IMG/VR virus record: IMGVR_UViG_3300005253_000435
Span: 1-44,458 of that record
Strand: one strand, 5' to 3'
Length of the DNA: 44,458 nt
Source of the DNA: a virus
Under the pieces are notes generated by a model that was given only the letters and a program-made list of their open reading frames with translations, had not been told where the DNA came from and made no database searches. The position numbers and the translations under genes were made by a program. Positions 10,141-36,928 of the stretch are shown in pieces (positions within the stretch are counted from its first letter, which is position 1; each line of letters starts with the position of its first letter).

Positions 10141-10142
10141 AA

Positions 10143-10214: not shown

Positions 10215-10271
10215 AGGAGGCACCGGCTTTTTATTAAGGGAGTAAGCCGCCGCCTAGCAAACGTCTCCAAA

Positions 10272-10352
10272 GCGGGAAGCGGGACTCGAACCCGCAACAC
10301 CCCGTCTGAACTTAATCATGAACGAGGACTCTAACCATTGAGCTACTCCCGC
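10272..10352 (-). tRNA. tRNA-like gene B with an enlarged 16-nt anticodon loop
   Basis: The acceptor GCGGGAG/TTCCCGC, D-arm (GCTC...GAGT) and T-arm (GCGGG, TTCGAGT, CCCGC) are all canonical. The anticodon stem CTCGT/ACGGG pairs fully (one wobble), but the loop between is 16 nt instead of 7, so no single anticodon can be read. A 9-nt insertion, a small intron or a decayed gene would explain it. The acceptor stem is nearly identical to gene A, suggesting duplication. CCA is not encoded. Confidence 0.55.
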
Positions 10353-12959: not shown

Positions 12960-12987
12960 ATTATACCACTTCATTCTGTGATGTCAA
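12960..12987 (-). promoter_or_regulatory. Sigma70 promoter, leftward
   Basis: On the minus strand TTGACA (12987-12982), a 16-bp spacer and TATAAT (12965-12960). Both boxes are perfect consensus. The box is preceded by TTTCTC, as in the neighbouring leftward promoter. Confidence 0.85.
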
Positions 12988-13066
12988 GAGAAATCTGTCC
13001 ACATAATCCTGCAAATTAAATTATTTTCATGCAAATTGTATTAGATATGACGATTATGCGGATAAT

Positions 13067-13255
13067 CTATTCATGCCATTCGAGTTTCTCGCACTTCAGG
13101 CAAGTCAAACAATGCCTGCGCCGCGTGAAATCATCCGCAGTTCTGTGCCCTGTGGTGTTGACCCACTGGTGCCCACCTACCCGGCATATCGTGCCATTGT
13201 CAATCAGCCGTTGGTCAGATTCTTCTCTTCTCTCTTCAGCTATGGTCTTACTCAT
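13067..13255 (-). CDS. Small zinc-binding early protein
   Basis: A 62-residue protein with C-x4-H followed by HCLTCLKC, a likely zinc site. The start has AGGTAGGGCAGACAG, the cassette shared by leftward early genes. It is located between two sigma70 promoters. The function is unknown. Confidence 0.62.
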   Translation of the reverse strand: MSKTIAEERREESDQRLIDNGTICRVGGHQWVNTTGHRTADDFTRRRHCLTCLKCEKLEWHE

Positions 13256-13272
13256 CTGTCTGCCCTACCTTT

Positions 13273-13470
13273 CTATGCCGAGTCTATATAGCGCCTCTCT
13301 TCATTACACCATACTAAGCCGTCGACTTTCGCTTTATGACGCCTCGCGGTCTCCACGATCGTATAACCGTCTTCCTCCTTGGTACGTTCCCACAAGCCGA
13401 CGCCCTTCAAATAGGCTGTAGCCTCTACACATGTGAACCCGCAGATCTCTTCGTACGACCGATTGTCCAT
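13273..13470 (-). CDS. Small early protein, possibly translated from a leaderless mRNA
   Basis: A 65-residue protein with ICGFTCVEATAYLKGVG and a basic/aromatic C-terminus. The ATG lies only 6 nt after a perfect TATAAT, so transcription from that promoter should begin at or next to the start codon. AGGTAG lies just before the ATG, within the -10 to start interval. It may be a DNA-binding protein, but no clear helix-turn-helix is seen. Confidence 0.6.
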   Translation of the reverse strand: MDNRSYEEICGFTCVEATAYLKGVGLWERTKEEDGYTIVETARRHKAKVDGLVWCNEERRYIDSA

Positions 13471-13476
13471 CTACCT

Positions 13477-13504
13477 ATTATACCCCACCCACGGGCTATG
13501 TCAA
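13477..13504 (-). promoter_or_regulatory. Sigma70 promoter, leftward, abutting a start codon
   Basis: TTGACA (13504-13499), 16-bp spacer, TATAAT (13482-13477) on the minus strand, with an A/T-rich upstream stretch (13505-13525) resembling an UP element. The ATG of the next gene is 6 nt downstream of the -10 box. Confidence 0.85.
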
Positions 13505-13559
13505 GAGAAAAATATATTTTTTATTCAAGCGTGCGAGGTCCAGAGTACGTACCTTAAGT

Positions 13560-13631
13560 CCGCGATGGAGCCCGTTCAAGGGCCAGGCCCTACCCCCTCT
13601 ACACAGCGCATGCCCCTCTATCGCGGCCATC
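13560..13631 (-). ncRNA. Candidate structured leader or small RNA
   Basis: The segment starts at the predicted +1 of the 13638-13666 promoter. CCGCGAT (13626-13620) pairs with ATCGCGG (13566-13560) to close a 67-nt fold containing GCCC/GGGC (13570-13583) and GGGCC/GGCCC. A 44-codon frame (13630-13496) begins at the same place, so a leaderless peptide is the alternative. I favour a structured RNA because of the closing stem. Confidence 0.35.
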
Positions 13632-13637
13632 CCTTAA

Positions 13638-13666
13638 AGCATAGCACACGCACGCGCCCATGTCAA
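13638..13666 (-). promoter_or_regulatory. Sigma70 promoter, leftward
   Basis: TTGACA (13666-13661), 17-bp spacer, TATGCT (13643-13638) on the minus strand. It is divergent from the plus-strand promoter at 13691-13719. Confidence 0.7.
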
Positions 13667-13690
13667 GCGCAAAGTTTTTTTGCCTACCCA

Positions 13691-13719
13691 TTTGCACATC
13701 ACCCACCAGTGTGTATACT
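13691..13719 (+). promoter_or_regulatory. Probable sigma70 promoter, rightward
   Basis: TTTGCA with a 17-bp spacer (or TTGCAC with 16) and TATACT (13714-13719). The -35 is weak. It is placed correctly to transcribe the rightward early genes starting at 13768. Confidence 0.55.
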
Positions 13720-13767
13720 ATGAGTACAACGATAGACAGCCCCATGGTGGGGCATCGGAGTGATATC

Positions 13768-13929
13768 ATGATGGACTCAATAGAACAGGCAGCGGCACTG
13801 GACATATGCGGGGTATCCCGCACTGCCCAGCGGAACGCGGCTATCTTGATGGAACACCAACTGATCGACAGATACGACGAGACACCCGACATGAGTTGGG
13901 TGGAGCTATACAAATGGCTAGGGTACTAG
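13768..13929 (+). CDS. Small DNA-binding-like protein, first rightward gene
   Basis: A 53-residue protein with AAALDICGVSRTAQRNAAILMEHQLI, which has the spacing of a helix-turn-helix (residues about 7-32). GGAG lies 7 nt before the ATG at 13768. An in-frame ATG at 13720 lies immediately after the -10 box and would make a longer form. It may regulate the divergent promoters next to it. Confidence 0.55.
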   Translation: MMDSIEQAAALDICGVSRTAQRNAAILMEHQLIDRYDETPDMSWVELYKWLGY

Positions 13930-13959
13930 TCTACGTGTAATTACTTAGGGGATCGGATC

Positions 13960-14040
13960 ATGAAAACGCTCACTGATGACGATTACCTCAACATGGACGT
14001 TGATTATTTGATATACCTCATCCTCGGGGAAATCGTATGA
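13960..14040 (+). CDS. 26-residue acidic peptide
   Basis: Reads MKTLTDDDYLNMDVDYLIYL and ends ILGEIV. It begins with the rightward start cassette (GGGGATCGGATCATG) and ends in an ATGA overlap with the next gene, which supports translation despite the small size. The function is unknown. Confidence 0.5.
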   Translation: MKTLTDDDYLNMDVDYLIYLILGEIV

Positions 14041-14171
14041 ACATAGACTGGCACACCCTACGGCGCAGTGCATTCGGTGACGACAGTATCGGTGAGATCC
14101 TGTTTCGCTGGACATGCCAAGGGATCGGCGTGCTGCTAAGCATCGGATGGATATTAGGAGGCGCATCATGA
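14037..14171 (+). CDS. Small protein with C-terminal hydrophobic segment
   Basis: A 44-residue protein. Residues about 24-42 (hydrophobic, Ile/Leu/Gly-rich) may span or dock to the inner membrane. ATGA overlaps at both ends couple it to its neighbours. The function is unknown. Confidence 0.5.
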   Translation: MNIDWHTLRRSAFGDDSIGEILFRWTCQGIGVLLSIGWILGGAS

Positions 14172-14311
14172 GAACACTAAGAGAGATAGTTAAAGACTTA
14201 CTAAATTCAGACTTTGCGCGGGGTAGGTGGCCGTGGCGAGACGAGGAGCGGACAAGTGACTTGATCGCGGAACTGGACGAGACATTAGCAGAATTGGAGA
14301 AGACATCGTGA
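14168..14311 (+). CDS. Small charged helical protein
   Basis: A 47-residue Arg/Glu-rich protein with a C-terminal amphipathic helix (SDLIAELDETLAELEKTS). GGAGG lies 6 nt before the ATG. ATGA and GTGA overlaps link it to both neighbours. It may be a protein-binding inhibitor, but nothing specific is visible. Confidence 0.55.
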   Translation: MRTLREIVKDLLNSDFARGRWPWRDEERTSDLIAELDETLAELEKTS

Positions 14312-14403
14312 GCATGTTCAGGGAATCGGTGTTGCTGTACAGACAATCAGAGTGGCCCCGCATCATCGTACTCGCCATCGCGGCATACGTTGCCATGTGC
14401 TAG
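14308..14403 (+). CDS. Very small membrane-segment protein
   Basis: 31 residues from a GTG overlapping the previous stop (GTGA), or 29 from an ATG at 14314. The C-terminal 15 residues are hydrophobic (IIVLAIAAYVAM). Coding status is moderately supported by the overlap. Confidence 0.4.
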   Translation: MSMFRESVLLYRQSEWPRIIVLAIAAYVAMC

Positions 14404-14439
14404 CCCCAGATCGGAAGATATCACAAATCGGAGACCATT

Positions 14440-14742
14440 ATGAGTGCATTTATCATTGACCACGAAACACATAACGTTAATAAGACTATCAGATTACTAG
14501 GCAGGCGCAAAAACGTAAGGGCTTGCCAATTTTTTGGCCAATACCGCGAGGATTTGGGCTTATGTCAGATCTACGTAGAAACGGATATGAATGAAGGCAC
14601 CCTGGACCATTGGCTATGGGCCACCAAATCGGTGGGGGACTATATTGCAGTATGCGAGACTGAGAACAGGGACACCGTTGGCACCATCACCGCCGATATG
14701 GTGCTGCTGCGCCAAAACAACGGAAACGGCGGTGTCGCATGA
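14440..14742 (+). CDS. Early protein of unknown function
   Basis: A 100-residue alpha/beta protein starting MSAFIIDHETHNVNKTI. GGAG lies 6 nt before the ATG within AATCGGAGACC, a variant of the shared start cassette. It is the last gene before the 0.63-kb non-coding region. The family is not recognised. Confidence 0.65.
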   Translation: MSAFIIDHETHNVNKTIRLLGRRKNVRACQFFGQYREDLGLCQIYVETDMNEGTLDHWLWATKSVGDYIAVCETENRDTVGTITADMVLLRQNNGNGGVA

Positions 14743-14792
14743 CAGCGATTATGACGATTGTGCGGGCAATAGTATAACAACAACGATTGTTC

Positions 14793-14878
14793 GAACTGTT
14801 CAAACTGTATAAACTGTATAGAAAATCACTATACTCCGTCTACCAAAAGCGACCTTGTCCAAACTGTACAAACTTTCA
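14793..14878 (+). repeat. Iteron-like 9-bp direct repeats (AAACTGTAT family)
   Basis: Copies at 14793 (GAACTGTTC), 14802 and 14811 (both AAACTGTAT), 14861 (AAACTGTAC) and 14870 (AAACTTTCA). They are arranged head-to-tail in two blocks with exact 9-bp phasing. They do not encode a supported gene. Confidence 0.7.
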
Positions 14879-15201
14879 AATTGGTAAAGGCGCATACGAA
14901 TTGACGAAACGCGCATACGATTTCCGGGGCTTCCTCGCGCTCTCACATTTGATTAGACCGCTCACCACTTGACAGTTTGAACACATTGGACAGCTTGTAT
15001 ATCGGGTGAGAAACAGCCCTATGAACGTATAAGAGGTATAAACACAATGGGCACAAGGGCTTATGAGTAAAAACGAGATGTTACACCCCGAATATGCCCT
15101 AACGAGCTATAAGCGCCGGTTTGTTACGCTGATCATTAATATTAAACTTTAAAGAGTGTTATGTTATGGGTATTTACTTTCTCTCACTGGCCTATGAAAG
15201 A

Positions 15202-15211
15202 TAAAGTAAGA
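15202..15211. promoter_or_regulatory. Upstream arm of a 10-bp inverted repeat around a promoter
   Basis: TAAAGTAAGA here is the exact reverse complement of TCTTACTTTA at 15241-15250, which occupies the spacer just before the -10 box. A dimeric regulator binding both arms could loop out or cover the -35 element. Confidence 0.5.
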
Positions 15212-15227
15212 ACGGTAAATACAAGTA

Positions 15228-15256
15228 TTGACATTTGCGCTCTTACTTTATATAAT
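15228..15256 (+). promoter_or_regulatory. Consensus sigma70 promoter, rightward
   Basis: TTGACA (15228-15233), 17-bp spacer, TATAAT (15251-15256). It is a perfect match and should start RNA near 15263, transcribing the small-gene cluster from 15378. Confidence 0.9.
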
Positions 15257-20894: not shown

Positions 20895-21021
20895 TTGCGA
20901 TGAGTGCCAAGAGAAGAAGGACTGCGTGTTTTGGTGCAACTGGGCCGATAAGCACTTATGCACAGAATGCTGGGCTGAGTTTTGTGAGAAAAACATGGAT
21001 ACGGCCGAAGATTTAACTTGA
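20887..21021 (+). CDS. Small Cys-rich zinc protein
   Basis: 44 residues from a GTG overlapping the methyltransferase end, with CDEC, then C, C, CTEC and C. The Cys spacing suggests two metal sites. Its stop TGA lies in the TTGACA of the next promoter. Confidence 0.6.
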   Translation: MTDCDECQEKKDCVFWCNWADKHLCTECWAEFCEKNMDTAEDLT

Positions 21022-21046
21022 CAGCCAGGAGATCGTCGGGTATAAT
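21018..21046 (+). promoter_or_regulatory. Consensus sigma70 promoter
   Basis: TTGACA (21018-21023), 17-bp spacer, TATAAT (21041-21046). It is a perfect match and overlaps the preceding stop codon. It should drive the RecG-like gene and following genes. Confidence 0.9.
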
Positions 21047-21072
21047 GAATGAAACACGGGAGGTGCCATGTA

Positions 21073-21678
21073 ATGCCGATTATGAAGATCCAGGCTAATG
21101 AATTGTTTTTCGGTACTCTTAGAGACTTCCCTAAAGGCACGTTCGATACATGTGAGCATTCCTATGGTTCCCCCGGTTGGTGGGGCACGAAACAGGAACT
21201 CAAATTTTGGAGGCACCCTATGAATTGGTTAAAAAATAAGTTGCGGGATTGGTTGAATGACGGCCGAGAACCGGCGCACTGGGACGATTTTTTAGCGCTA
21301 TCCAATAAATCTAGGAACACGAATAAAATGATTAGTCGTTTGTGCGACCGCGTCCAGTTACTTGAAGACATCGAAACTGAATACGCCGCCGAGGAGGGTT
21401 CCGTCTTCGACGACGTGACGCTAAAGGCCATCTTCGACCGTTTGCAAAGTCAGGCTGACGTTGTAAACGCAACTCAGCATATGACAATCGATCTATTGGA
21501 GGATTTGGGCAATCGCTTGTATGCGGTGGAGGAAAAGACGAACGAAAACAGGGGGTTCGTGACCGATTTATACGGGCAGCACGACGACGGCCAAGTATCG
21601 GGACTGTCTGTACGGACAGGCGCCGTTGAACGAAAACTAGTTGAGCACGAGGTTAGAATCACAGGTCTGGGCCGATGA
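21073..21678 (+). CDS. Protein of unknown function with two possible in-frame starts
   Basis: 201 residues from ATG 21073 (GGGAGG upstream) or 152 from ATG 21220, which also has a perfect GGAGG 6 nt before it. The C-terminal part is helical and looks coiled-coil-like (QLLEDIETEYAAEEGS, then LYAVEEKTNENRGF). It ends ATGA over the RecG-like gene, so it may partner with it. No family is recognised. Confidence 0.6.
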   Translation: MPIMKIQANELFFGTLRDFPKGTFDTCEHSYGSPGWWGTKQELKFWRHPMNWLKNKLRDWLNDGREPAHWDDFLALSNKSRNTNKMISRLCDRVQLLEDIETEYAAEEGSVFDDVTLKAIFDRLQSQADVVNATQHMTIDLLEDLGNRLYAVEEKTNENRGFVTDLYGQHDDGQVSGLSVRTGAVERKLVEHEVRITGLGR

Positions 21679-23537
21679 ACCTCTCAGAGTCTATAAAAAC
21701 TCTCAGCGGCGTGGGACCCAAGCGGGCAACAGCGCTGGGGGAGATGGGCATCAAAACGGTGTCCGATCTCCTCCACCACTACCCGCGCAGCCATGTGTTC
21801 GCCCGATACAGCACGATCCCCGACTTCCGAGAGGGTGACAAGGTGGTGTTCCAGGCTACGGTCATGAAGGTGACTAGGATCAAGCACTTCTTCATCGTGA
21901 AGCTGATGGATGGCGAGTACGAGACCACTTGTATGTTCTTCAACGTTCCCAGTATTCGCGCGATGTTGAGGGTGAACGGGTCGTACTGGTTCTGGGGTAA
22001 GGCGATCATTCCCCCATACAGAGGAGGTTTCCAGCTCACGAATCCGCAGTTCAGCCAACGTGAGCCGACCGGTATTTTTGATAGCGGGGCGCCGGTATAC
22101 CCGGCTACTAAGGCTGTTCCGTCTGACATGATAGCCAAGCTGATTAAGCAGGTGCTTAACGCCTGTTCGCAGGTGGATTTGAAACAGGTGGACGTAGCGC
22201 CAACAGATTTTATGCACCCAGTGAACGCTATACGCGCCATCCATTTCCCCGAGGATAAGCAGCAACTCCAACGCGCTAGGAAGACGCTGAAGTACATCGA
22301 GATTCGTGACGTCCTTCAACGCATGGATTCTCAGAAGCAACAGGCGAAACTGTCGAAGGTTTTTTGCGCCGTAGGTAGGGATCGTGGCGGTAATTTCTAC
22401 AGCGACAAGGCATACCAGCCGTTTGACATCGAATTTACCGGGGATCAGGTACGGGCCACCCTTGATATAGAGGCCGGTCTTGACTCGCATTTGCGCATGA
22501 ACCGGTTGCTTCAAGGGGACGTGGGCTGCGGGAAGACAGCCGTGGCCCAGTGGGCGTCCCTCTACGTGGCTAACTGCGGTATGCAGACTGTAGTCATGTG
22601 TCCCACGCTGGCACTCGCTCGGCAGCATTACGAGTCGTGGTCTAGGTTGTTTATGGGTACCGAATTCTGTGTGGGCCTGCTGACATCCGAGAATAGCGAA
22701 TATTGCTGCGGATGTGGCGTGATTATAGCCACTACATCTGCTCTATCAGATAAAGTGGAGTTCGACAAACTTGGCCTTCTCATAGTAGACGAAGAGCACA
22801 AGTTCGGCAAGGACCAAAAGGATAAGCTCTATCATAAGTATGGTACGAATCGGCTGCTTATGACAGCAACACCGATCCCAGCCGCGCTGACTGCTACTCT
22901 GTTCGCTGATCTGGACGTTACTACCATACGGGAGATGCCAGCGGGTAGGGGAAAGAGAACGACGCGCGTACTGTTGCCGGGCGACCACGGGTCTGTTCCG
23001 TTATCCGGTCAGATATACGAGGTGTTTTCCAGGATCGAGGGGCCGGGCGGTATAGAAGAAGCGGTCCATGTGCCGTTTAATGGTGAATTTAGAGCAGTGT
23101 GCCACGGCAACAGGAAACCGGCGCATAATGCCGCTGCGATAGGTGCTTTTCATCGCGGTGAAGTTAAACGGATGTACTGCACTTCGATGCTCGAAGTCGG
23201 TATTGACAATCCGAATGCGAACACTATAATAGTACATGACGCCAACATGTTCGGGCTGTCCCAGCTTCATCAGATGCGCGGGCGAGTGGGTCGTGGTACC
23301 GACGACTCTTATTGCTACCTGCTGTTGGATACTGCCGATGAAGTGGCGCACGACAGGGTCCGATTTCTTGAGACCTGCGACGATGGTTTCGAGGTGGCTG
23401 AGAAAGACCTTGAACTGCGAGGCCCGGGCGAGTTGGCTGGGAACAGGCAGACGGGATTGGCTGAGTTCAAGCTTACTGACTTGGTGTCGGACTATAGGCT
23501 GATCAAACGTGTTCGGAAGGATTTGAGATTATGCTAA
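21675..23537 (+). CDS. recG-like: RecG-like branched-DNA helicase
   Basis: A 620-residue protein, shorter than the roughly 690 residues of bacterial RecG. The N-terminus has the helix-hairpin-helix-like LSGVGPKRATALGEMGIKT of the wedge region. The helicase core shows Walker A GDVGCGKTA (Lys 287), DEEH (Asp 372), TATPIPA, and QMRGRVGRG (motif VI). RecG remodels replication forks and D-loops by branch migration. In a phage it could drive recombination-dependent replication, a role filled by UvsW in T4. It is transcribed from the 21018 promoter with coupled starts. Confidence 0.9.
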   Translation: MNLSESIKTLSGVGPKRATALGEMGIKTVSDLLHHYPRSHVFARYSTIPDFREGDKVVFQATVMKVTRIKHFFIVKLMDGEYETTCMFFNVPSIRAMLRVNGSYWFWGKAIIPPYRGGFQLTNPQFSQREPTGIFDSGAPVYPATKAVPSDMIAKLIKQVLNACSQVDLKQVDVAPTDFMHPVNAIRAIHFPEDKQQLQRARKTLKYIEIRDVLQRMDSQKQQAKLSKVFCAVGRDRGGNFYSDKAYQPFDIEFTGDQVRATLDIEAGLDSHLRMNRLLQGDVGCGKTAVAQWASLYVANCGMQTVVMCPTLALARQHYESWSRLFMGTEFCVGLLTSENSEYCCGCGVIIATTSALSDKVEFDKLGLLIVDEEHKFGKDQKDKLYHKYGTNRLLMTATPIPAALTATLFADLDVTTIREMPAGRGKRTTRVLLPGDHGSVPLSGQIYEVFSRIEGPGGIEEAVHVPFNGEFRAVCHGNRKPAHNAAAIGAFHRGEVKRMYCTSMLEVGIDNPNANTIIVHDANMFGLSQLHQMRGRVGRGTDDSYCYLLLDTADEVAHDRVRFLETCDDGFEVAEKDLELRGPGELAGNRQTGLAEFKLTDLVSDYRLIKRVRKDLRLC

Positions 23538-24525: not shown

Positions 24526-24797
24526 ACTACGTGAATGGAACATTTGAGGCATTGGGGGGTGTGTTCATATTCTTGAACGTCCTCAAGCTACACAAGGATA
24601 AAAAGGTGCGCGGAGTGAGCACGGCCGCTATCGGATTCTTCACAACGTGGGGTTTCTGGAACCTCTTGTATTACCCCGCCATAGGTCAGATAGCGTCAGC
24701 GTGCGCGGCTGGCATAGTCGCACTTGTCAATTTAGTGTGGCTGGGACAGATCTTTTACTACAATAGAAAGGAGAAGTATGAACAAGAAAGACACTAA
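24519..24797 (+). CDS. PQ-loop-like small membrane protein
   Basis: A 92-residue protein with three hydrophobic segments (about 13-24, 35-56, 58-78) and a positive patch (KLHKDKKVRGVS) between them, the pattern of half-size PQ-loop/MtN3-type membrane proteins found in several phages. Transport or membrane-scaffold roles are possible. The function in phages is not established. It overlaps the regulator upstream. Confidence 0.6.
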   Translation: MVDYVNGTFEALGGVFIFLNVLKLHKDKKVRGVSTAAIGFFTTWGFWNLLYYPAIGQIASACAAGIVALVNLVWLGQIFYYNRKEKYEQERH

Positions 24798-25230
24798 CCC
24801 AAAAGACGCGGTCGGTGTGAGGAAGTGGCGCCAGTACTGCACCGTGCCTTGCACTGTGCTGTGGGAACTTGGCGTGGCCATGCTTGAAGGCGCCCGCAAG
24901 TACGGCAGACATAACTACCGCGTGTCCGGTGTGCGGGCGTCTGTGTACGTTGACGCTTCCAAGGGCCACATAGACCAGTGGTGGGAAGGTGAAGATCTCG
25001 ATTCAGATTCCAAGTTATGCCACATCACAAAGGCTATCGCCACACTGGTAGTTATGCGGGACAGCATGATCCGTGGGAATTTCGTGGATGATCGGCCACC
25101 TAAGGTCGACCTCCCAAAAATACGTAACGAGCTTCAAGCCAGGGTGGAAGAGATCATTGATAAGTATCCCGATCCCATTGACCCATTTACACAGAAAGGA
25201 ATTGATGATGAAGAAACCACTGTTTCTTGA
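24778..25230 (+). CDS. MazG-fold dATP/dGTP diphosphohydrolase-like protein (MazZ-like)
   Basis: A 150-residue protein with ELGVAMLEGARKYGRHNYR and HIDQWWEGEDLDSDS...H, the metal-binding Glu/Asp helices of the MazG superfamily. It fits the dATP/dGTP diphosphohydrolase N-terminal family that includes MazZ, which hydrolyses dGTP to dGMP in 2-aminoadenine phages. No PurZ or DatZ is in the window, so a complete Z-genome pathway is not shown. It may instead shape the dNTP pool for the polymerase encoded downstream. GGAG precedes the ATG. Confidence 0.75.
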   Translation: MNKKDTNPKDAVGVRKWRQYCTVPCTVLWELGVAMLEGARKYGRHNYRVSGVRASVYVDASKGHIDQWWEGEDLDSDSKLCHITKAIATLVVMRDSMIRGNFVDDRPPKVDLPKIRNELQARVEEIIDKYPDPIDPFTQKGIDDEETTVS

Positions 25231-25792
25231 CGTTGATGGCATTCTTGTAGACTGGTGCAAGGGCGCCCACGAAATACACGATGTGCCATATTTTGGCGAC
25301 GGTGACAGGTGGCCGTACGCCCGAGGCCCAGCGGGCTGGAACTTTTGCAGAGAACTTGGTATACCTGTGGAGGATTTATTCAAGGGCATGGGACATGAGT
25401 TCTGGGCCAGTCTTGATTGGACTGCGGATGGCAAGCGCATACTGGAATATTGCGAGAATATAGTCGGCCCACTGAACGTGTTTCTGTTGACGTCGCCATG
25501 TTCCAATCCCGGCACTATCGAGGGGCGCATGGAGTGGATACGCAGAGAGATGCCGGAGTACGCCGGGCGAACGATAATTGCTACTGTGGATGATGGGGGC
25601 AACGGGTGTAAGCGCGCCATTGCGCGTCTAGGCACCGTTCTCATAGACGACTATGACTGCAATGTCGATGAATGGACCCACTACGATGGACTAGGTCTCC
25701 TCTACCCGAGGCCGTGGAATAGCAACCACACGGTGACGGACCCCATGACGTGGCTCACACTGAGACTCAACGAAGTCTACGGAGATCAATAA
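25208..25792 (+). CDS. HAD-family 5'(3')-deoxyribonucleotidase-like phosphatase
   Basis: A 194-residue protein (ATG 25208 chosen, 7 nt after AAAGGA; 25205 is possible). The HAD motif LDVDGILVDW is at residues 6-15, with a second motif at LLTSP and the acidic motif VLIDDYDCN near 145. The family hydrolyses deoxynucleoside monophosphates or related phosphates. With the MazZ-like and metallophosphoesterase neighbours it suggests nucleotide recycling. It overlaps the preceding gene. Confidence 0.78.
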   Translation: MKKPLFLDVDGILVDWCKGAHEIHDVPYFGDGDRWPYARGPAGWNFCRELGIPVEDLFKGMGHEFWASLDWTADGKRILEYCENIVGPLNVFLLTSPCSNPGTIEGRMEWIRREMPEYAGRTIIATVDDGGNGCKRAIARLGTVLIDDYDCNVDEWTHYDGLGLLYPRPWNSNHTVTDPMTWLTLRLNEVYGDQ

Positions 25793-26484
25793 TGGCTAGA
25801 GTACTTGTAATAGGTGATATACATGCCCCGGCTACGCGTAAGGGGTACATGCAGTTTTGCCGGGACTTGTACGCGCAATGGGATTGTGATCACGTTGTGT
25901 TCATAGGCGACGTTGTTGACTGGCACGCCATAAGTTTCTGGGCGAAAAATCCAGAGTGCCCAGGTCCCGCCGATGAATACGAGTTAGCTAAGACTGAGGT
26001 CAAGAAGTGGTCGCGAGCTTTTCCTAAAGCAGACGTCTGCATAGGAAATCATGATGAGCGCCCTACTAGACTGGCCAAGTCGGTGTCGATACCCGAATTT
26101 ATGATCAGGCCGTATAGTGAGCTGTGGCCCGCCAAGCAATGGACGTGGGACTGGAAATTCAGCTATGACGGAGTGTGTTATCGGCACGGAACTGGCTGTG
26201 CAGGAATACACCCGGCGTGGAATCTGATGAACAAAACGTACCAATCCGCAGTGATCGGGCATCTGCATACAAGGGCTGGGATCAAGTGGACTTGTAATGA
26301 GAATCAGCGCACATTTGGGATGGACGTCGGGTGCGGCATCGATGAGAAAGCGTGGCAATTTATCTACGGAAGGGACCACCTTATCCGGCCTTTCTTATCA
26401 GCGGGTGCCGTCATAGACGGCATACCTTATCATGAACCCATGCTTTGTGGCAAAGGGGAGACATATCATGACTCAAAGTTCTAA
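25792..26484 (+). CDS. Calcineurin-like metallophosphoesterase
   Basis: A 230-residue protein with the complete metal motif set: GDIHAP (7-12), GDVVDW, GNHDERP, and GHLHTRAG near residue 163. The TAATG overlap with the HAD gene couples the two. Phage enzymes of this type can act on nucleotides, DNA 3' ends or RNA. The substrate is not evident. Confidence 0.85.
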   Translation: MARVLVIGDIHAPATRKGYMQFCRDLYAQWDCDHVVFIGDVVDWHAISFWAKNPECPGPADEYELAKTEVKKWSRAFPKADVCIGNHDERPTRLAKSVSIPEFMIRPYSELWPAKQWTWDWKFSYDGVCYRHGTGCAGIHPAWNLMNKTYQSAVIGHLHTRAGIKWTCNENQRTFGMDVGCGIDEKAWQFIYGRDHLIRPFLSAGAVIDGIPYHEPMLCGKGETYHDSKF

Positions 26485-27240: not shown

Positions 27241-27389
27241 TGGGATCCTTTTTAGGCATTTTGATGATACTGTGTTCTGTCGGTTCTGCTGTATGTAATT
27301 ACAACAGACCGAAGATGTCAGCTTACTTGCTGATCGGCGCCATCGCTGCTCTCGCGGGCATAGCCTTGATAAGGCAGTTTCTGCCGTGA
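27240..27389 (+). CDS. Small two-helix membrane protein
   Basis: A 49-residue protein with two hydrophobic segments (FLGILMILCSVGSAV and LLIGAIAALAGIALI) separated by a short polar turn. It overlaps the upstream stop by 1 nt and the polymerase GTG start (GTGA). The function is unknown. Confidence 0.6.
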   Translation: MGSFLGILMILCSVGSAVCNYNRPKMSAYLLIGAIAALAGIALIRQFLP

Positions 27390-29494
27390 AACAAACCACC
27401 ATAGAATGCCTAGAGCGGATCGGCTACCCGACTGATCTCATCATGCTTGATTTCGAGTCGTACTTTGATGACGAATACACCCTTAAGGATTCGTCGACCA
27501 TCGAGTATGTCACCGATTCGCGCTGGGAGTTATTGGGTTGCGGCTTCCAGATCCTGTCACCATACGGCGACACTCCCGCCTATTTCAAGGATAAAGAAGA
27601 GCTAGAGGCGCACCTTATGGAGTTGTGGTACCAGTACGGAAGATTCGATGGAGATGAGGTCACCATTGTTGCCAAAAACGGTAAGTTTGACTTCACGATT
27701 CTCAAGCACCATTATGGCATGGTGCCGAAGTATATGCTGGACCTCGACGATCTACTCCGATTCTACGATGCGCGTATGCGTCATAAGTTGAAGGACGTCG
27801 TGAAACTATTCGGCCTGAAAGAAAAAGGCGATACGATGAAATTCAAGGGCCTCACATTTGATATGATCTGTGATGACCCCGCCGCGTACGATTACCTCGC
27901 CGACTACACCATTAACGATATCGAGAGACAGGTCGAACTCTTGGAAATCGTATTCCCCCTGATAGATTTCACGGAAGACGAAGCAGCGCTCGCCCGGCAC
28001 ACGCATGACCTGTTCCTTAATCCGCAGTTCCGTGTTGACCGTGAGCGGGCTACTAAAGTACGTCTGGGAATGCAGCTTGAGCTTGCCCGTATCATAAAGA
28101 ACTACGCTCCTAAGTTGCTGGGATCGGATATACGGCTGGCGAATAGACTCGGCGCTTTGTTGGCAGAGCATGGCGAGAAGCTCCCCCTCAAGTTGAAAGG
28201 TACGAACAAGAAGACGGGTAAACAGTGCATCGCGACAAAGAACATGTTGCCGCAACTGCAAGAGTTCGGGGGTGAAACCCCAGACGGTGCCCCTTTAGAG
28301 CACTGCGGCCCTACGTTCGCCAAGGATGACGACGGTTGCAAATGGCTACAAGCGCACACCGATCCGCAGATTAGTGAGCTAGTCAAGGCTCGGATAGCCG
28401 TGAAATCGTGGCCTACGCATATAAAAAAGGTTACCGGTATCATGGATCAAGCGACATGTGGCGGTAGCGACATGCTGCGGGTTCCACTGACCTATTACGG
28501 CTGTCACACTGGGCGCCCGTCTGGCGGAGAAGGGATAAACTTGTTAAATCTAGGCGGCAAGGGCCGCGGTACGCCGATTCATTCTCTCATTTCACAAGTG
28601 CGCGGCATACTCCAACCACCGAAAGGTCGGCTACTCTGCATTGTAGACTCTGAGCAGATCGAACCCAGATTGCTTGCATGGATGGCCGGCCAGCAGGACA
28701 TGCTGGATGCGTTCGCCAATGGCGAGGATCTTTATTCTGACTTCGCGTCTGACTTATTTCAAAGTCGTGTGTGGAAATGGGACGACAAGGTAGACGTCGA
28801 AGAATACCCTGGGCAAAAGACGCAGGTCGAAATATGGAGAGGGTTCGGCAAGGACAATATAATCGGTGATGGGTATGGCCTAGGTGGCCGCACGGCCTAT
28901 GCGAGATGCTTGCAAAACCCATTCCTTCGACCTAGGTTTGATAGTGGGGAGTACGACTTTAAAACTGTACAAAAAGGTGTCGACCTGTATCGCAGCAAAT
29001 ATAACCACATCCCTAAATTCTGGACTCGGATGGAGAAGTGCTGGGGCATAGCGGCCCGCATCAAGAACCAGGCGCACCCCATAAAGATACCAGGGACACC
29101 ATCGTGTATCACGTTCACAATGGAAGATAATTCGGTGATGATGAAGCTCCCATCTGGTCGGCGTATCCGGTACCGAAATGCCAGGTATTCGCACAAGCAC
29201 AGGACTATCAAGTTCCGTCACGGGCACCTCTGGGGCGGAACTTTGACTGAAAATGCCGATCAGGCCATAGCCCGTGACTTGTTGTGCTACTGGATTCTCA
29301 AGGCACTGCGCGACAAGGACTATGATTTCAATATCGTCCTGTATCCGTATGATGAGATCGTGGCGGATGTGCCAGAGAAGTATGCTGAGGAGCACCTTGC
29401 ACGTTTGCAGGAGATTATGACGTCAAAGCCCGATTGGGCCAGGGGTCTGCCACTGTCAACTGATCATAAAATAGCCGATAGGTATCTGAAATGA
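27386..29494 (+). CDS. polA-like: Family A DNA polymerase with 3'-5' exonuclease
   Basis: A 702-residue phage replicative polymerase (GTG start overlapping the upstream stop). Exonuclease motifs are LDFES (Asp22/Glu24), NGKFDF (Asn98/Asp102) and a third near 175 (YTINDIERQ). Polymerase motif A is VDSEQIEPR (Asp421). Motif B is RGFGKDNIIGDGYG (Arg485, Lys489, Tyr497), in which the position equal to E. coli Pol I Phe762 is Ile493. Motif C is YPYDE (Asp656, Glu657), where the usual His before DE is Tyr. There is no 5'-3' exonuclease domain. Confidence 0.93.
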   Translation: MKQTTIECLERIGYPTDLIMLDFESYFDDEYTLKDSSTIEYVTDSRWELLGCGFQILSPYGDTPAYFKDKEELEAHLMELWYQYGRFDGDEVTIVAKNGKFDFTILKHHYGMVPKYMLDLDDLLRFYDARMRHKLKDVVKLFGLKEKGDTMKFKGLTFDMICDDPAAYDYLADYTINDIERQVELLEIVFPLIDFTEDEAALARHTHDLFLNPQFRVDRERATKVRLGMQLELARIIKNYAPKLLGSDIRLANRLGALLAEHGEKLPLKLKGTNKKTGKQCIATKNMLPQLQEFGGETPDGAPLEHCGPTFAKDDDGCKWLQAHTDPQISELVKARIAVKSWPTHIKKVTGIMDQATCGGSDMLRVPLTYYGCHTGRPSGGEGINLLNLGGKGRGTPIHSLISQVRGILQPPKGRLLCIVDSEQIEPRLLAWMAGQQDMLDAFANGEDLYSDFASDLFQSRVWKWDDKVDVEEYPGQKTQVEIWRGFGKDNIIGDGYGLGGRTAYARCLQNPFLRPRFDSGEYDFKTVQKGVDLYRSKYNHIPKFWTRMEKCWGIAARIKNQAHPIKIPGTPSCITFTMEDNSVMMKLPSGRRIRYRNARYSHKHRTIKFRHGHLWGGTLTENADQAIARDLLCYWILKALRDKDYDFNIVLYPYDEIVADVPEKYAEEHLARLQEIMTSKPDWARGLPLSTDHKIADRYLK

Positions 29495-29775: not shown

Positions 29776-29939
29776 GAGTAGGCGGATATAAATGTCGATC
29801 CTGGCGATTGAAGAAGAATTACGAAAGGCGCAAGACACAGATATTCAGGACGTACCTGGACGCCTCACTCTGTTTTCACTATGAGTCGCGTTTGAAAGAG
29901 ACTCGGTTCTGGGGGCAATTCCGTGCGAAAGAACAGTAA
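29772..29939 (+). CDS. Small basic protein nested with the next gene
   Basis: A 55-residue, strongly basic protein (SWRLKKNYERRKTQIFRTYL). It ends 16 nt inside the next gene in another frame and overlaps the previous stop by ATGA. The function is unknown. Confidence 0.5.
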   Translation: MRVGGYKCRSWRLKKNYERRKTQIFRTYLDASLCFHYESRLKETRFWGQFRAKEQ

Positions 29940-30366
29940 AAGAATAGCCTTCAAGCGGTTCGCTCAGATGCTAAGGCACGGCAAGCCCAGTGTGCGCAAA
30001 AACGGCTCCATGGCAACGAAACCGATCGTGCCCGTGGCTGAGGCAACGGAAGCGGAAGTCACTAAAGAGTGCGTGGAGTGGCTAAGACGTCACGGTTGTA
30101 GGATGAAGAGGCAGAACAATGGGGCTGGCTATTTGAACGATAGTCCCAATTACGCAACGTACGGTATAACAGGCAGCGCAGATTTTACGGGTATGCTGCC
30201 CAGTGGTCGCCGTCTGGAGGTGGAGTTCAAGAAGGGCAGCGGCGGCGTACTCAGCAAGGACCAGATAGATTACATGATTTGGACACGCGGGTGTGGTGGC
30301 GCCTACATTTGCGTCCACGGTCTTGAAGAATTAAAAGAAAAAATGAAAAATTTCCTTGACATTTAA
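29923..30366 (+). CDS. VRR-NUC domain nuclease
   Basis: 147 residues from GTG 29923, or 118 from ATG 30010. The VRR-NUC pattern is present: EAEVTKECVEWLRRHGC, GSADFTG (metal-binding Asp), EVEFKKG (Glu and Lys) and LSKDQIDYM. Such stand-alone domains are Holliday-junction or flap-type nucleases in many phages. It sits with the polymerase and Cas4-like nuclease, fitting recombination or replication. A promoter begins within its last codons. Confidence 0.8.
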   Translation: MRKNSKRIAFKRFAQMLRHGKPSVRKNGSMATKPIVPVAEATEAEVTKECVEWLRRHGCRMKRQNNGAGYLNDSPNYATYGITGSADFTGMLPSGRRLEVEFKKGSGGVLSKDQIDYMIWTRGCGGAYICVHGLEELKEKMKNFLDI

Positions 30367-30617: not shown

Positions 30618-31868
30618 ATGAGTAAACGACTTATACATCTCAGTGCGTCATCGATCGGTGATTACAAGGCATGTGTCACGCGGTTCATGGCCAAGTACAT
30701 TTGTGGTCTTCGGCGGACTGGGCACACGGAGTCGCAGAGACGCGGGCTTATCTGGCATACCCTCCAAGAAATTCTATACGGTAAGCCCGGCGGGCCTTGT
30801 CCCCTGTGCTGCGATCCTGGTTTATTAGAAGGCAGTATCATGCCAGGCGCGACATGCGCCGTATGTGACTGTACTGGGGTCATGTTACATGATACAGCTC
30901 TAAAGGCTGCGCAGGAACATCTCTGTAAGCATTATGAGCACGTGCCTAGCGGAGTAGAGCCGGAGGCGTACGAGACCGAGCGCGCTAAGCTCCTATACGC
31001 ATTACACGTCTACAACTGGTACTGGAACATCCAGAGCGATGGTCTTGGGTACGAGGTTGTTGCAACAGAGGTACCATTCAAGTTACCTATCTTGAACCCA
31101 GACGGCAATGTGTGCCGCGATGCTATTCTCGTCGGTAAGATTGACAAGATAATACGTTTCGGTGATACGCTTGTCGGTACGATGGAACACAAGTCAACGA
31201 CCAGGGATATCGACCCGAATGCTGAGTATTGGAACAAGCTAATCATAGACACCCAGACGACTATGTACCCCTATGCACTTGCGAGGATGCAGAAAGAGGG
31301 ACAGCTTGAGAAGTACGGCATCATGCCAGACCATGAGCTACCCGTGACAACCCTGTACGATGTCACCCGCATGCCAGCCATAAAGATGAAGGCATTGAGC
31401 CAGGCAGAGACGAACTCTTTAATCGAGACCGGCGAATATTGCGGGGCTGAGTTCGACATCGATGGATGCGGCATAACAAAGGATGGTAATAAAAAGAACC
31501 AATGGTTCAGTGACCGCCCGACAGTCGATGGTTGCTCCGTCACGATAGTCGAGGGAAAGAAGGCCAGTGCGTTCCGGGAAACGGAGAACATGTACGGGGC
31601 TCGCGTGTTCAGGGATATGACGGAAAACCCCGAGGAGTATTTCCAACGTAGGGAGATAACGAGGACCACAGACGAGCTTGCCCGATTCGAGGGAGAGATA
31701 TACTCTATCTACAAACACATCCTGTACTTGCGCAAAACCGGGTATTGGTACAAGTGCGAGGGCTCTTGTGAGCGACCATTCAAATGTGATTACGCGTTGT
31801 CTTATTGCTACGTCGGTGAAGAGATAAGCAGAGACAACGTCTTAGAAGGGTTCGAGTTAATTTGGTGA
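30618..31868 (+). CDS. Cas4/RecB-like PD-(D/E)XK nuclease with Cys clusters
   Basis: A 416-residue nuclease. The catalytic core is DKIIRFGDTLVGTMEHKST (Asp176, Glu190, Lys192). An N-terminal Cys (YKACVTRFM) and a C-terminal C-x3-C-x5-C group resemble the four-Cys iron-sulphur cluster of Cas4/AddB. A separate insertion with CPLC and CAVC (about 55-85) looks like a zinc ribbon. No CRISPR array or Cas1 is present, so this is a phage recombination exonuclease, next to the Sak4-like ATPase. Confidence 0.82.
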   Translation: MSKRLIHLSASSIGDYKACVTRFMAKYICGLRRTGHTESQRRGLIWHTLQEILYGKPGGPCPLCCDPGLLEGSIMPGATCAVCDCTGVMLHDTALKAAQEHLCKHYEHVPSGVEPEAYETERAKLLYALHVYNWYWNIQSDGLGYEVVATEVPFKLPILNPDGNVCRDAILVGKIDKIIRFGDTLVGTMEHKSTTRDIDPNAEYWNKLIIDTQTTMYPYALARMQKEGQLEKYGIMPDHELPVTTLYDVTRMPAIKMKALSQAETNSLIETGEYCGAEFDIDGCGITKDGNKKNQWFSDRPTVDGCSVTIVEGKKASAFRETENMYGARVFRDMTENPEEYFQRREITRTTDELARFEGEIYSIYKHILYLRKTGYWYKCEGSCERPFKCDYALSYCYVGEEISRDNVLEGFELIW

Positions 31869-31878
31869 AGAGGCGACT

Positions 31879-32031
31879 ATGGACTTGTGCAGCAACAACC
31901 ACAAAGAATTGTGTTATAATTCGGGTTTTTGTCCGGCATGCGAGATCAGAGATGAGTTACAAGAAAAGATTGACACCCTCAATGCCTCCCTTGATGAACT
32001 GACAGAGGAACTAAAAAAGGAGTTAGAGTGA
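31879..32031 (+). CDS. Small zinc-finger/coiled-coil protein
   Basis: A 50-residue protein: Cys at residues 4, 13, 19 and 22 (ending CPAC), then a heptad-like helix (QEKIDTLNASLDELTEELKK). The stop overlaps the next ATG (TGATG). TGnTATAAT at 31912-31920 may be an extended -10 promoter inside it. Confidence 0.55.
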   Translation: MDLCSNNHKELCYNSGFCPACEIRDELQEKIDTLNASLDELTEELKKELE

Positions 32032-32927
32032 TGACAGAAGTTAAGAAACCGCTACCGAAATTTGACAATGCAGCAGCGAAGGCAGCTAGGTCCAACATGA
32101 CCAGATCTGTAAAGGACAAAAAGCGCATAAAGAAAAATTTCTCAATCACAGAATTCGCCAACGGCGAGGAAGGGAAAAAGATTATCCTGTACTCTGACTC
32201 TGGCATGGGCAAGACTTCCCTGGCCGCTACTCTGCCGAGCCCAGTATTCATTTGCCCAGACAGGGGAATACAGGAATTGGTACACCCACTCGGATTGACA
32301 TGGCCCATCGTGAAAGACGTGGATACATGGGGCGATTTAAGGGACGTTACCCAAGACTTGTCCCTGTTCAAAGACAAGGAATCGGTAGTATTCGACACTG
32401 GCACGGTTGCCCAGAATTCCCTTTGCACTCCATGGGTGGTCGAGAATATACCTAAGGAGAAGGGCGGCAAGGCCAGGAAGATCGCGGATTATGGATACGG
32501 AGGTGGGTACGAGCACGTATTCTATGAGATGCTGCTGTGGCAGTCCGATCTCGACGGACTCGTTCGCGCTGGTAAGAACGTGGTGATATTGTGTCAGGCG
32601 GCGCAATCGGAAATCGACAAAGCGGGATACGGCAAGTACCTGCAATCGCATCCGGATCTTTTCAACAATAAGAAAGGTCCCGTCATGCCATCCTTCGTGG
32701 CGTGGGCCAGTTACGTTTTATACATAGACTGGGCGGATATTAAGATAGACGATCAGAAGCGTGCTATTGCTTCAGATGAGCGGGGTGTGTTTACTAAGCC
32801 CGAGATGTTCTTCAAGGCTAAGTCACGCGGTGACGTCTTTGAAGAATACCCGCTCGTGCAGTTCGAGAACAACGCCGACGATACGTTGTGGCGCATTATG
32901 TTCGATGGAGATACCGAAGATGACTAG
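32031..32927 (+). CDS. Sak4-like RecA-family ATPase
   Basis: A 298-residue protein (ATG 32031 chosen, 8 nt after AAAGGAG; GTG 32028 is possible). Walker A SDSGMGKTS (Lys61), Walker B SVVFDTG, and a RecA-like core with VVILCQAAQ. This matches phage single-strand annealing/recombination ATPases of the Sak4 or AAA_24 type, usually encoded with a single-stranded DNA-binding protein. It probably works with the nucleases upstream. Confidence 0.85.
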   Translation: MTEVKKPLPKFDNAAAKAARSNMTRSVKDKKRIKKNFSITEFANGEEGKKIILYSDSGMGKTSLAATLPSPVFICPDRGIQELVHPLGLTWPIVKDVDTWGDLRDVTQDLSLFKDKESVVFDTGTVAQNSLCTPWVVENIPKEKGGKARKIADYGYGGGYEHVFYEMLLWQSDLDGLVRAGKNVVILCQAAQSEIDKAGYGKYLQSHPDLFNNKKGPVMPSFVAWASYVLYIDWADIKIDDQKRAIASDERGVFTKPEMFFKAKSRGDVFEEYPLVQFENNADDTLWRIMFDGDTEDD

Positions 32928-34591: not shown

Positions 34592-36928
34592 ATGAAAAGA
34601 ACCATAGCCCAGAAATATGAAGCATACCGCCACAACATGACGACCGGTATGTGGAAGGCGATGAGCGAAGAACTCAAGCTTGACGTCTCTATACTCGAAA
34701 GGATGGGCGCGGGCTACGTCCCAGGTGATATAACGGATAAAGGTCCGAGATGGCAGAATGCCTGGGTGTTCGCAGAGCGGAATTCAAAAGGTGACGTAAC
34801 AGGCTTGTTGCTCCGGTACCGAGAAAGTGGAAAAAAGTTTTGCGCCACAGGCTCAAAGCATGGCCTGTATTATGAATATGACCCGTCTAGTGACAGGTCT
34901 AAAAAGAGATTCAGGGAGGGTCGCCACGAATGGATGCGAGTAGATAGTGACCTTTACCCACTGAAGGACAAAGGTTGCCCGTTGTGTGGTCGTAAGAAAT
35001 ACTGCATGGTCAGCGCAGATGACCCGTTAGATCCACCCGCTGTTCTATGCACGAAGAAGAAAACCAGAATCCAGCAGTCAACGGGTTGGCTTCACATACT
35101 GGATGCTTCTAGGAACATGGGCGGCATCACATCGCCGATGAAGGCCAGTGACGGTCCCGTGCTATGCGTCGAAGGAGCTACGGATTGGGGTGCTGGTCTG
35201 ACACTCGGGTTCGACACCATAGGGAGGCCGTCTAACCTGGCTGGTATCGAGATGCTACAGAGGATGCCATTTAACGGGAGGCCAATATGGATAATCGGCG
35301 AGAACGACAAGACCGTGAACGCCGCAGGAGACATCGACTGGCCAGGAAAAGACGGCGTCGACAAAACCGCGATCAACTTACAGGGGCTCGGGCCGATCAT
35401 GAAGGTCTATCCCCCGGAGGGTGTGAAGGACTTACATGACTGGCTTGTTCGCGGCCTCGTCAGAGATGACTTCACGGAGTACGTCGAGGAACATGGTGAC
35501 CGCAGCGAGGAGATTGACCCTGATTTATTTGCAGACAAAGACGTTATAAAAATTGGAAGGCGATTCCTGTCAGAGAACTTTACAGTCGGGGAGTCGCCGA
35601 CCCTTAGATTCTATTACGGCTCGTGGTACCAGTGGAATGGCTCGTGCTATGAGCAAATCGGTCTACCCGCGGTGCGCGGCTGCATGTATGACTTTTTAGA
35701 AGGCAAACAGTTCATAGCGACAGATCCTAGCGGTGTGAAACGGGTTCAACCTTATCTAGTGAGCAGGACTAAAGTATCTGATATAATGGAAGCGTTTACA
35801 CGCGGGGGATGTCTTATTAAAAACGATCCCCCGTGCTGGACACGGGGTGTAAGCGGTTCGAAACCGGAAAATCTCATTTGTTTTAAGAACGGGGTTATAG
35901 ATGTCGAGGAATATATCAACGGACGAGTCACCCTACACGAACCTCACCCAGATTTCTTCTCTACTACCTCTTGTCCCTATGATTTTAACGGTGACGCAGA
36001 CTCCAAATTCGTTGACGATTTCTTGCTCGAAACTTACGGAGGAAACCGAGATTGTGCGGACCTTCTTTGGGAGTGGTGCGGGTACCTGCTTGTTCCAGAT
36101 ACGTCATTTGAGAAAATGATGCTACTACAGGGTAGCCCTAGATCCGGCAAAGGAACAGTTATCGAAATGGCGTCTAACATCGTAGGGGCGGATCAACACT
36201 GCACCACTACTCTTAGAGCGATGACAGAGCGATTTGGTCTTCAACCATTCTTGGGTAAACATCTATGTACGTTGGGAGATGTGCGTAACCCTAGTGCAAG
36301 TATACTTAGACGCGCCTTGGAATTGATGCTCGGCTTAGTAGGCGGGGACCCTCAGCCTGTAGAGAAAAAAGGGGTAAACGATTTGCCTTTGGTCTACCTA
36401 AAAGCTCGGTTTATGCTGGCTATGAACGAGATACTAGCGGTTTCGGACGAAACCGGCGCCATGGAATCCCGCTTGTTGGTGCTCAAGCATTTCGGATCGC
36501 ACATTAAGGATGAAGATCATAAAATAAAGAAGCGAGTGACGCAAGAAGCCAAAGAGGGCAAGCTTATCGTCAATGCCCTAAACGGCCTGAAACGGTTACG
36601 TGCGAACAACCGATTCACGGAACCGAAATCGTCGGGCGAGATCATGGATCAGTTCCGCAGCATGTCGGCACCTGTTTCTACATTCCTACAAGACTGCTGC
36701 ACGGTGGAATCGGATGGAGTAGCGTGCCTGAACTCGATGTTTGAAGTGTGGTCTGGCTGGTGTAGAATCAATGCGAGGAAGTCCGGTCTACCCGAGCAGT
36801 TCTCGAAGTGGTTGCTCGGTCACGTACCGTCAGTGAAGAGGAGCACGTCTCAAAATGGTGAAAGGACTGTGCGAGTCTTCACTGGAATAAAGATACAGGA
36901 ATGGGCATATGAAAGGTACATAGAATGA
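34592..36928 (+). CDS. D5-type primase-helicase
   Basis: A 778-residue fusion. The zinc part CPLCGRKKYC is near 130-140. The TOPRIM primase region shows VLCVEGATDW (about 190) and an acidic IGENDKT and DIDWPGKDG. A D5_N-type region follows (about 310-480). The SF3 helicase has Walker A GSPRSGKGT (near 515), then motif B and sensor strands. The C-terminal winged helix (STFLQDCCTVESDGVACLN onward) resembles the small protein at 15593. It should prime and unwind DNA for the polymerase. Confidence 0.88.
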   Translation: MKRTIAQKYEAYRHNMTTGMWKAMSEELKLDVSILERMGAGYVPGDITDKGPRWQNAWVFAERNSKGDVTGLLLRYRESGKKFCATGSKHGLYYEYDPSSDRSKKRFREGRHEWMRVDSDLYPLKDKGCPLCGRKKYCMVSADDPLDPPAVLCTKKKTRIQQSTGWLHILDASRNMGGITSPMKASDGPVLCVEGATDWGAGLTLGFDTIGRPSNLAGIEMLQRMPFNGRPIWIIGENDKTVNAAGDIDWPGKDGVDKTAINLQGLGPIMKVYPPEGVKDLHDWLVRGLVRDDFTEYVEEHGDRSEEIDPDLFADKDVIKIGRRFLSENFTVGESPTLRFYYGSWYQWNGSCYEQIGLPAVRGCMYDFLEGKQFIATDPSGVKRVQPYLVSRTKVSDIMEAFTRGGCLIKNDPPCWTRGVSGSKPENLICFKNGVIDVEEYINGRVTLHEPHPDFFSTTSCPYDFNGDADSKFVDDFLLETYGGNRDCADLLWEWCGYLLVPDTSFEKMMLLQGSPRSGKGTVIEMASNIVGADQHCTTTLRAMTERFGLQPFLGKHLCTLGDVRNPSASILRRALELMLGLVGGDPQPVEKKGVNDLPLVYLKARFMLAMNEILAVSDETGAMESRLLVLKHFGSHIKDEDHKIKKRVTQEAKEGKLIVNALNGLKRLRANNRFTEPKSSGEIMDQFRSMSAPVSTFLQDCCTVESDGVACLNSMFEVWSGWCRINARKSGLPEQFSKWLLGHVPSVKRSTSQNGERTVRVFTGIKIQEWAYERYIE

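What the first reader, a model, noticed from the sequence alone, without database searches (positions are those of the whole stretch)
21675..23537. RecG-like helicase encoded by a phage
RecG is a bacterial fork-remodelling helicase, while phages usually use other branch-migration enzymes such as UvsW. This copy keeps wedge and helicase motifs but is shortened by about 70 residues.
Basis: partly seen in the sequence, partly recalled or inferred. Interest (0 to 1): 0.5.

Follow-up and report, generated by a model that had tools for sequence, protein, structure and literature searches.

The report
Phage-owned RecG branch-migration helicase
This uncultured phage carries its own divergent copy of RecG, a motor that remodels stalled replication forks and DNA junctions in bacteria; related phages share it, and it looks like long-inherited phage property rather than a recently stolen host gene.

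Summary
The ORF at 21675-23537 (620 aa) is a true RecG homologue. All four Pfam domains of RecG pass their cut-offs; of 50 PDB entries listed only T. maritima RecG aligns over the model's whole length; a tree with Mfd as outgroup puts it in RecG, 100/100. It keeps 79 of 88 columns near-invariant in 69 cellular or host-derived RecGs; the missing ~70 residues lie mainly in the C-terminal tail and three helicase loops. It is not contamination or a recent capture: RecGs of 20 other virus records join it in one clade (quick tree), RecG and Sak4 distances correlate over 20 phages (r 0.85, 0 of 10,000 permutations), and replication genes lie beside RecG in 19 of 21 loci. RecG is patchy: 8 of 28 Sak4-retrieved records of 40 kb or more carry it. 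Most likely it is the phage's branch-migration/fork-regression motor, as UvsW is in T4; function is inferred. The papers I saw describe no phage RecG lineage, but PHROGs holds a full-length family of unknown function. No donor phylum was resolved.

The parts
21675..23537 (+). phage RecG gene, 620 aa; ATG overlaps the stop of the upstream ORF (ATGA)
21693..22157 (+). RecG wedge (OB-fold) domain, residues 7-161; F89 aligns with position F204 of the T. maritima chain
22500..22877 (+). helicase domain 1 (DEAD, residues 276-401): Walker A GDVGCGKT 281-288, DEEH 372-375, TATPIP 397-402
23097..23294 (+). helicase domain 2 (Helicase_C, residues 475-540), motif VI QLHQMRGRVGR 530-540
23379..23519 (+). 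RecG domain 3 C-terminal part (residues 569-615) with the TRG-type segment DLELRGPGELAGNRQTG (motif name recalled); tail after it about 30 residues shorter than in cellular RecG
21018..21046 (+). perfect consensus sigma-70 promoter upstream of the ORF that precedes RecG
21049..21678 (+). unknown ORF directly upstream, overlapping RecG by 4 bases
27386..29494 (+). family A DNA polymerase of the shared replication module
29923..30366 (+). small endonuclease-like protein (phrog_93 'endonuclease'); resolvase role only inferred
30618..31868 (+). PD-(D/E)XK exonuclease of the module
32028..32927 (+). Sak4-like ssDNA annealing protein (AAA_24)
34592..36928 (+). P4/D5-type primase-helicase

Best explanation
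The gene encodes a virus-owned RecG with every helicase motif in place. Shown: RecG domain order, helicase motifs, the TRG-type segment, one phage clade, inheritance in step with the phage's Sak4 gene, and purifying selection in four pairs of related copies. Inferred: it binds three- and four-way junctions with its wedge, tracks on the parental duplex with its two RecA-like motor domains, and regresses stalled phage forks or moves Holliday/D-loop branches made by the phage's exonuclease and Sak4, so that replication restarts or the neighbouring endonuclease can resolve them. It would thus fill the place that UvsW holds in T4 and D10 in T5.
For: Domains and motifs: (79 of 88 near-invariant columns kept). 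Model pLDDT 82.4, pTM 0.68; of the 50 entries listed only RecG 1gm5 aligns over residues 1-619 (590 aligned, Z 31.1, rmsd 8.1), the others cover the motor part only. Clade: 99/95 for 20 phage rows of 62, SH-aLRT 100 for 21 of 90, 88/87 for 18 of 71 on the motor part with Mfd outgroup. Co-inheritance with Sak4 over 20 phages: r 0.85, 0 of 10,000 permutations. Replication genes in the fetched stretch beside RecG in 19 of 21 loci. In each of the 17 RecG-bearing records the one Helicase_C match found is RecG itself. dN 0.19-0.31 against dS 1.1-1.4 in four pairs of relatives. UvsW and RecG act alike in fork regression, and UvsW complements part of a recG null (PMC3778716, passages); T5 D10 is a branch-migration protein (PMC5180179, passages with part of the abstract).
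Against: No activity was measured. The window's own RecG has no relative close enough for a selection test (nearest 41.7%). 9 of 88 near-invariant cellular positions differ, including R403A after TATPIP; H354T is shared by most phage copies (12 of 20). The C-terminal tail is about 30 residues short. NCBIfam's RecG equivalog cut-offs are not reached (456.6 of 711; 413.6 of 659.4). In the structure comparison five Mfd chains have a higher Z than 1gm5, on the motor part. RecG is not found in 20 of 28 Sak4-retrieved records of 40 kb or more (one of them, L033, is a truncated copy of the window's phage), so the module can apparently work without it.
Confidence: 0.68

Rival explanations
1. Recent capture of the host's recG, or bacterial DNA mis-binned as virus.
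For: This occurs elsewhere: the RecG of Pseudomonas phage R24 lies in the last 7 kb of the record with an HU gene about 2 kb away and groups with Pseudomonadota-type RecGs; L009, L014, L017, L019 and L023 nest inside bacterial clades.
Against: The window copy and 20 others form a separate clade (19 others), follow Sak4 and mostly lie beside phage replication genes. Identity to the cellular RecGs compared about 30-35%.
Confidence: 0.03
2. The protein is phage RecG, but its main job is removing R-loops or countering host defence or host DNA repair, not restart or recombination.
For: RecG unwinds R-loops in vitro (PMC5055574, passages). Patchy presence suits an accessory role.
Against: Two clades of seven phages each on the Sak4 tree all carry RecG, and RecG follows Sak4 in distance.
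Confidence: 0.17
3. A shortened, degraded or purely structural remnant without motor activity.
For: Loss of about 70 residues and nine unusual residues.
Against: All motifs present; the nearest relative, 41.7% identical, shows a similarly short tail, so it is inherited rather than damage.
Confidence: 0.05
4. An Mfd-type or other SF2 helicase.
For: Motor domains match the Mfd model at 255 bits, and Mfd chains top the structure list.
Against: RecG model 456.6 bits; wedge present; the tree puts it in RecG, 100/100.
Confidence: 0.01

Closest known systems
Bacterial RecG (T. maritima 1gm5, RecG chain 9wm0)
   Same: Wedge, two motor domains, domain 3 with the TRG-type segment, in the same order
   Different: About 30-35% identity to the cellular copies compared; shorter Ia-Ib loop; Lys in DE.HKFG and Arg at 453, both typical of phage copies; tail about 30 residues short
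T4 UvsW / T5 D10
   Same: SF2 branch-migration or fork-regression role expected in a phage with its own recombination genes
   Different: Relation beyond the SF2 core not tested here; that they lack the RecG wedge fold is recalled
phrog_34613
   Same: Full-length match (1-616 on 1-641 of 666, 277.4 bits)
   Different: Annotated as unknown function; its members were not seen here and may include host copies
Mfd translocase
   Same: Same motor domains
   Different: No RecG wedge match region (the match covers residues 249-594 only); lies outside the RecG clade

Membership tests
RecG | RecG wedge domain (PF17191) | tested here: met
   43.8 bits against cut-off 23
RecG | SF2 motor with Walker A, DE.H, ATPIP and QLHQ.RGRVGR | tested here: met
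RecG | RecG domain 3 C-terminal part with TRG-type segment (PF19833) | tested here: met
   37.7 bits against 26.8
RecG | Phylogenetic place inside RecG rather than Mfd | tested here: met
   100/100 branch; only 3 Mfd rows used
NCBIfam RecG equivalogs | Curated whole-protein score | tested here: not met
   456.6 of 711 (NF008165), 413.6 of 659.4 (TIGR00643); so it is a RecG homologue, not filed as an equivalog. Whether the bacterial copies used here pass was not tested
RecG | Fork regression / junction branch migration | not testable with these tools
   needs biochemistry
UvsW-type phage helicase | Match to the UvsW family over its length | tested here: inconclusive
   Best PHROG is phrog_34613 (277.4 bits, full length); the next, phrog_16 'DNA helicase' 48.8 and phrog_6819 'Holliday junction branch migration helicase' 20.1, touch the motor part only. 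Which PHROG holds UvsW was not looked up
Mfd | Mfd curated score | tested here: not met
   255.3 of 800, match limited to residues 249-594

The most novel reading that the evidence does not exclude
RecG exists as an ancient virus-owned lineage, as deep as the bacterial phyla, that serves Sak4-type phages as their dedicated branch-migration engine and is passed on vertically with the phage replication genes.
Probability: 0.35. Interest if true: 0.62.

Novelty: new variant of a known kind. Interest (0 to 1): 0.47.

Why it matters
It would give phage recombination-dependent replication another kind of fork-remodelling motor next to UvsW/D10, in a module with Sak4. Phages with and without RecG in one group make a natural experiment on what RecG is for, a question that a 2016 review treats as unsettled (PMC5055574, title, start of abstract and passages). 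The shortened copy asks which parts of RecG are dispensable for fork regression.

Tried and rejected
Host capture and contamination: rejected by trees and synteny. The RecG hits of R24 and of IMG/VR records L009, L014, L017, L019 and L023 are taken as host DNA from neighbours or tree; fragments L020, L021, L024 and L026 are closest to bacterial or host-derived rows; L022, L025 and L027 were taken as Mfd from length and match and form one 100/100 group. A first IMG/VR scan with the window protein alone found nothing. Many hits look like bacterial contigs, but only three of 58 were opened; two of these (L003, L004, faecal 'Bacteriophage sp.' without annotation) went into the search alignment A1 and were not placed in a tree.

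G023 first looked like the same phage without RecG; blastn showed that its contig simply ends on either side of the gene. Replacement of RecG by another SF2 helicase in RecG-less phages: one of 33 such records (G041) had a Helicase_C match, in a protein that looks SNF2-like by eye. Prophages with phage-type RecG: no score above 578.7 bits in 200 genomes of the phylum of G076; this does not exclude divergent ones, as the phage copy L016 scores 495.5 on the same profile. Host not found. A resolvase identity for 29923-30366 was not confirmed: no Pfam match for it or two relatives, no PDB match for the family. Intein of L018: no Pfam intein match. The viral structure library gave one strong match (A0A8S5RSW5, Siphoviridae sp. 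ctZF426, E 9e-31), not followed up.

Literature: nine searches of the held open papers; in titles, abstract starts and the passages read of six papers I saw no phage RecG lineage. One paper models 39 residues of a toxic phage protein on RecG domain 3 (PMC8145870, passages), which is another matter. Most subscription papers are not held.

Limits of the trees: L018 was left out; a further 21 rows were dropped; the Sak4 tree holds one record twice (L134 and L155 are both G060). The bacterial set was picked by similarity (80 of 592 confirmed candidates kept by the tool), and no row used is titled as Planctomycetota, Acidobacteriota or Myxococcota. L016 and some other phage branches are long, so attraction between them is possible.

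Full report
What it is. The ORF at 21675-23537 is RecG. Pfam finds wedge, DEAD, Helicase_C and RecG domain 3, all above their curated cut-offs. The best NCBIfam models are RecG, but their equivalog cut-offs are not reached. The nearest PDB sequence is T. maritima RecG over residues 2-618. An AlphaFold2 model (pLDDT 82.4, pTM 0.68) aligns to that structure over residues 1-619 (590 aligned, rmsd 8.1, so the domains are not packed alike), while the other 49 entries listed match the motor part only, five Mfd chains with higher Z. With three Mfd motor domains as outgroup the protein lies in RecG at 100/100.

What is missing. Against 69 cellular or host-derived RecGs the window keeps 79 of 88 near-invariant columns. 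The shortening is spread: tail after Q592 29 residues against a median 59, Ia-Ib 43 against 53, R425-Q446 21 against 29, Q446-H477 31 against 40. The nearest relative, G060 (41.7% identical), has a tail of about the same length (the two shortest phage tails are 29 and 32), so this is an inherited trait of that pair and not a sequencing fault; the other 18 phage tails measured are 51-62. The short Ia-Ib loop is typical of phage copies (median 44.5, cellular minimum 49), and so are Lys in DE.HKFG (18 of 20 phage rows; Arg in 64 of 69 others) and Arg at 453 (18 of 20; Leu in 59 of 69).

It is phage property. Two RecG scans of IMG/VR with alignments brought 28 loci; a first with the window protein alone brought none. 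Sixteen of the 28 (L005-L008, L010-L013, L015, L016, L018, L028-L032) are phage copies by neighbours and tree, L029 carrying the same RecG as L028; the other 12 are host DNA, fragments nearest to host rows, or Mfd. Five further phage copies came from searching records with the same Sak4 or primase (G039, G047, G051, G053, G060). In trees these form one side of a branch: 20 phage rows, 99/95 (62 rows, where L011 was still labelled doubtful and fell just outside); 21 rows including L011, SH-aLRT 100 (90 rows, quick method, no bootstrap); 18 rows, 88/87, on the motor part with outgroup (after 21 rows were dropped and L018 left out). In the rooted tree the deep branches are unresolved, so neither a donor phylum nor a stem position is shown.

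It travels with a replication module. The window has a family A polymerase, an endonuclease-like protein, a PD-(D/E)XK exonuclease, Sak4 and a D5/P4 primase. Relatives of the polymerase or the primase lie in the fetched stretch beside RecG in 19 of 21 loci; the exceptions are L016 (none in the stretch, though its record has Sak4 elsewhere) and L011 (only a weak Sak4 match). There are two arrangements: RecG upstream of the polymerase (window, G060, L006, L008 group), or downstream of the primase (L005 group). Over 20 phages RecG and Sak4 protein distances correlate at r 0.85, 0 of 10,000 permutations as high; L030 departs, with RecG close to L032 (76%) but Sak4 not (47%), which suggests exchange between phages. 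L011, a different phage with Gam-like, Sak4 and SSB genes, also has RecG. On a Sak4 tree of 46 rows (one record entered twice) RecG presence needs 7 changes against about 15.8 in shuffles, 0 of 500 as low, though well-supported branches alone force only 2; absence there means not found on records of 40 kb or more, which may be fragments. Of 28 Sak4-retrieved records of 40 kb or more (counted), 8 carry RecG; one of the other 20 is the truncated copy of the window's phage. itself found RecG in 17 of 50 records, 12 of which had been put in because they carry it; one search found it in 9 of 9 records put in for it and as a short fragment in 1 of 13 others.

How it probably works. RecG tracks on duplex DNA with its motor while the wedge holds the junction, and so regresses forks and moves branches; UvsW behaves alike and complements part of a recG null (PMC3778716, passages read). 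In this phage the exonuclease and Sak4 would make annealed or invaded joints, RecG would migrate or regress them, and replication would restart or an endonuclease would cut. Only the parts list and their co-inheritance are shown; the order of steps is inference. dN/dS of about 0.14-0.24 in four pairs of relatives speaks for a working protein; dS is above 1, so the ratio is rough, and the window's own copy could not be tested this way.

Expression. The ATG overlaps the stop of the upstream ORF (ATGA). A perfect consensus sigma-70 promoter lies before that ORF at 21018-21046, one of five in the window where shuffles give a mean of 0.01. Another perfect one lies inside RecG (23203-23230); of the 20 phage loci with RecG scanned, the window included, L008 and L028 also have one inside theirs.

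Novelty. RecG is a known family; a phage RecG clade inherited with Sak4 phages was not met in nine literature searches, of which I saw listings and passages of six papers. PHROGs holds a full-length family of unknown function, phrog_34613, and the viral structure library has one strong match, so single copies are already in databases. I therefore rate it a new variant of a known kind.

Noticed in passing
L018:7122-10022: This phage RecG is 966 aa with an intein-like insert of roughly 300 residues exactly inside the Walker A motif (GDVG|C...TGN|CGKT); uninserted relatives L005, L007, L155 and the window have Cys where most cellular copies seen have Ser. Read by eye; no Pfam intein match.
   Followed up: partly
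window 23203-23230: Perfect TTGACA-16-TATAAT promoter inside the RecG coding sequence, over the residues IDNPNANTII that follow motif V; L008 (9042-9070) and L028 (7961-7989) also have perfect promoters inside RecG.
   Followed up: partly
window 12960-15256 and 21018-21046: Further perfect sigma-70 consensus promoters; five in the window in all, against 0.01 expected.
   Followed up: no
window ends: Record G023 (40,514 bases) matches the window at 99.8-99.9% in two blocks and carries about 6.2 kb between the window's end and start, so the phage genome is probably about 50.6 kb and the window incomplete.
   Followed up: partly
G011:C1:23984-24136: A 69-aa open frame matches only positions 2-51 of the RecG profile (E 2.8e-12) in a relative without full RecG: a possible remnant or free helix-hairpin-helix protein.
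   Followed up: no
window 29923-30366: Small protein with a D..G...G...EvEfK-like pattern reminiscent of PD-(D/E)XK/VRR-NUC nucleases (motif recalled); database support only from phrog_93 and the unnamed phrog_824.
   Followed up: partly
window 24778-26484: dATP/dGTP diphosphohydrolase domain (PF18909, 66% identical in L006), followed by a deoxyribonucleotidase-like and a metallophosphoesterase gene; may point to modified or skewed nucleotide pools.
   Followed up: no
window 10142-10352: Two tRNA genes on the minus strand, one tRNA-Met and one with unclear anticodon.
   Followed up: no
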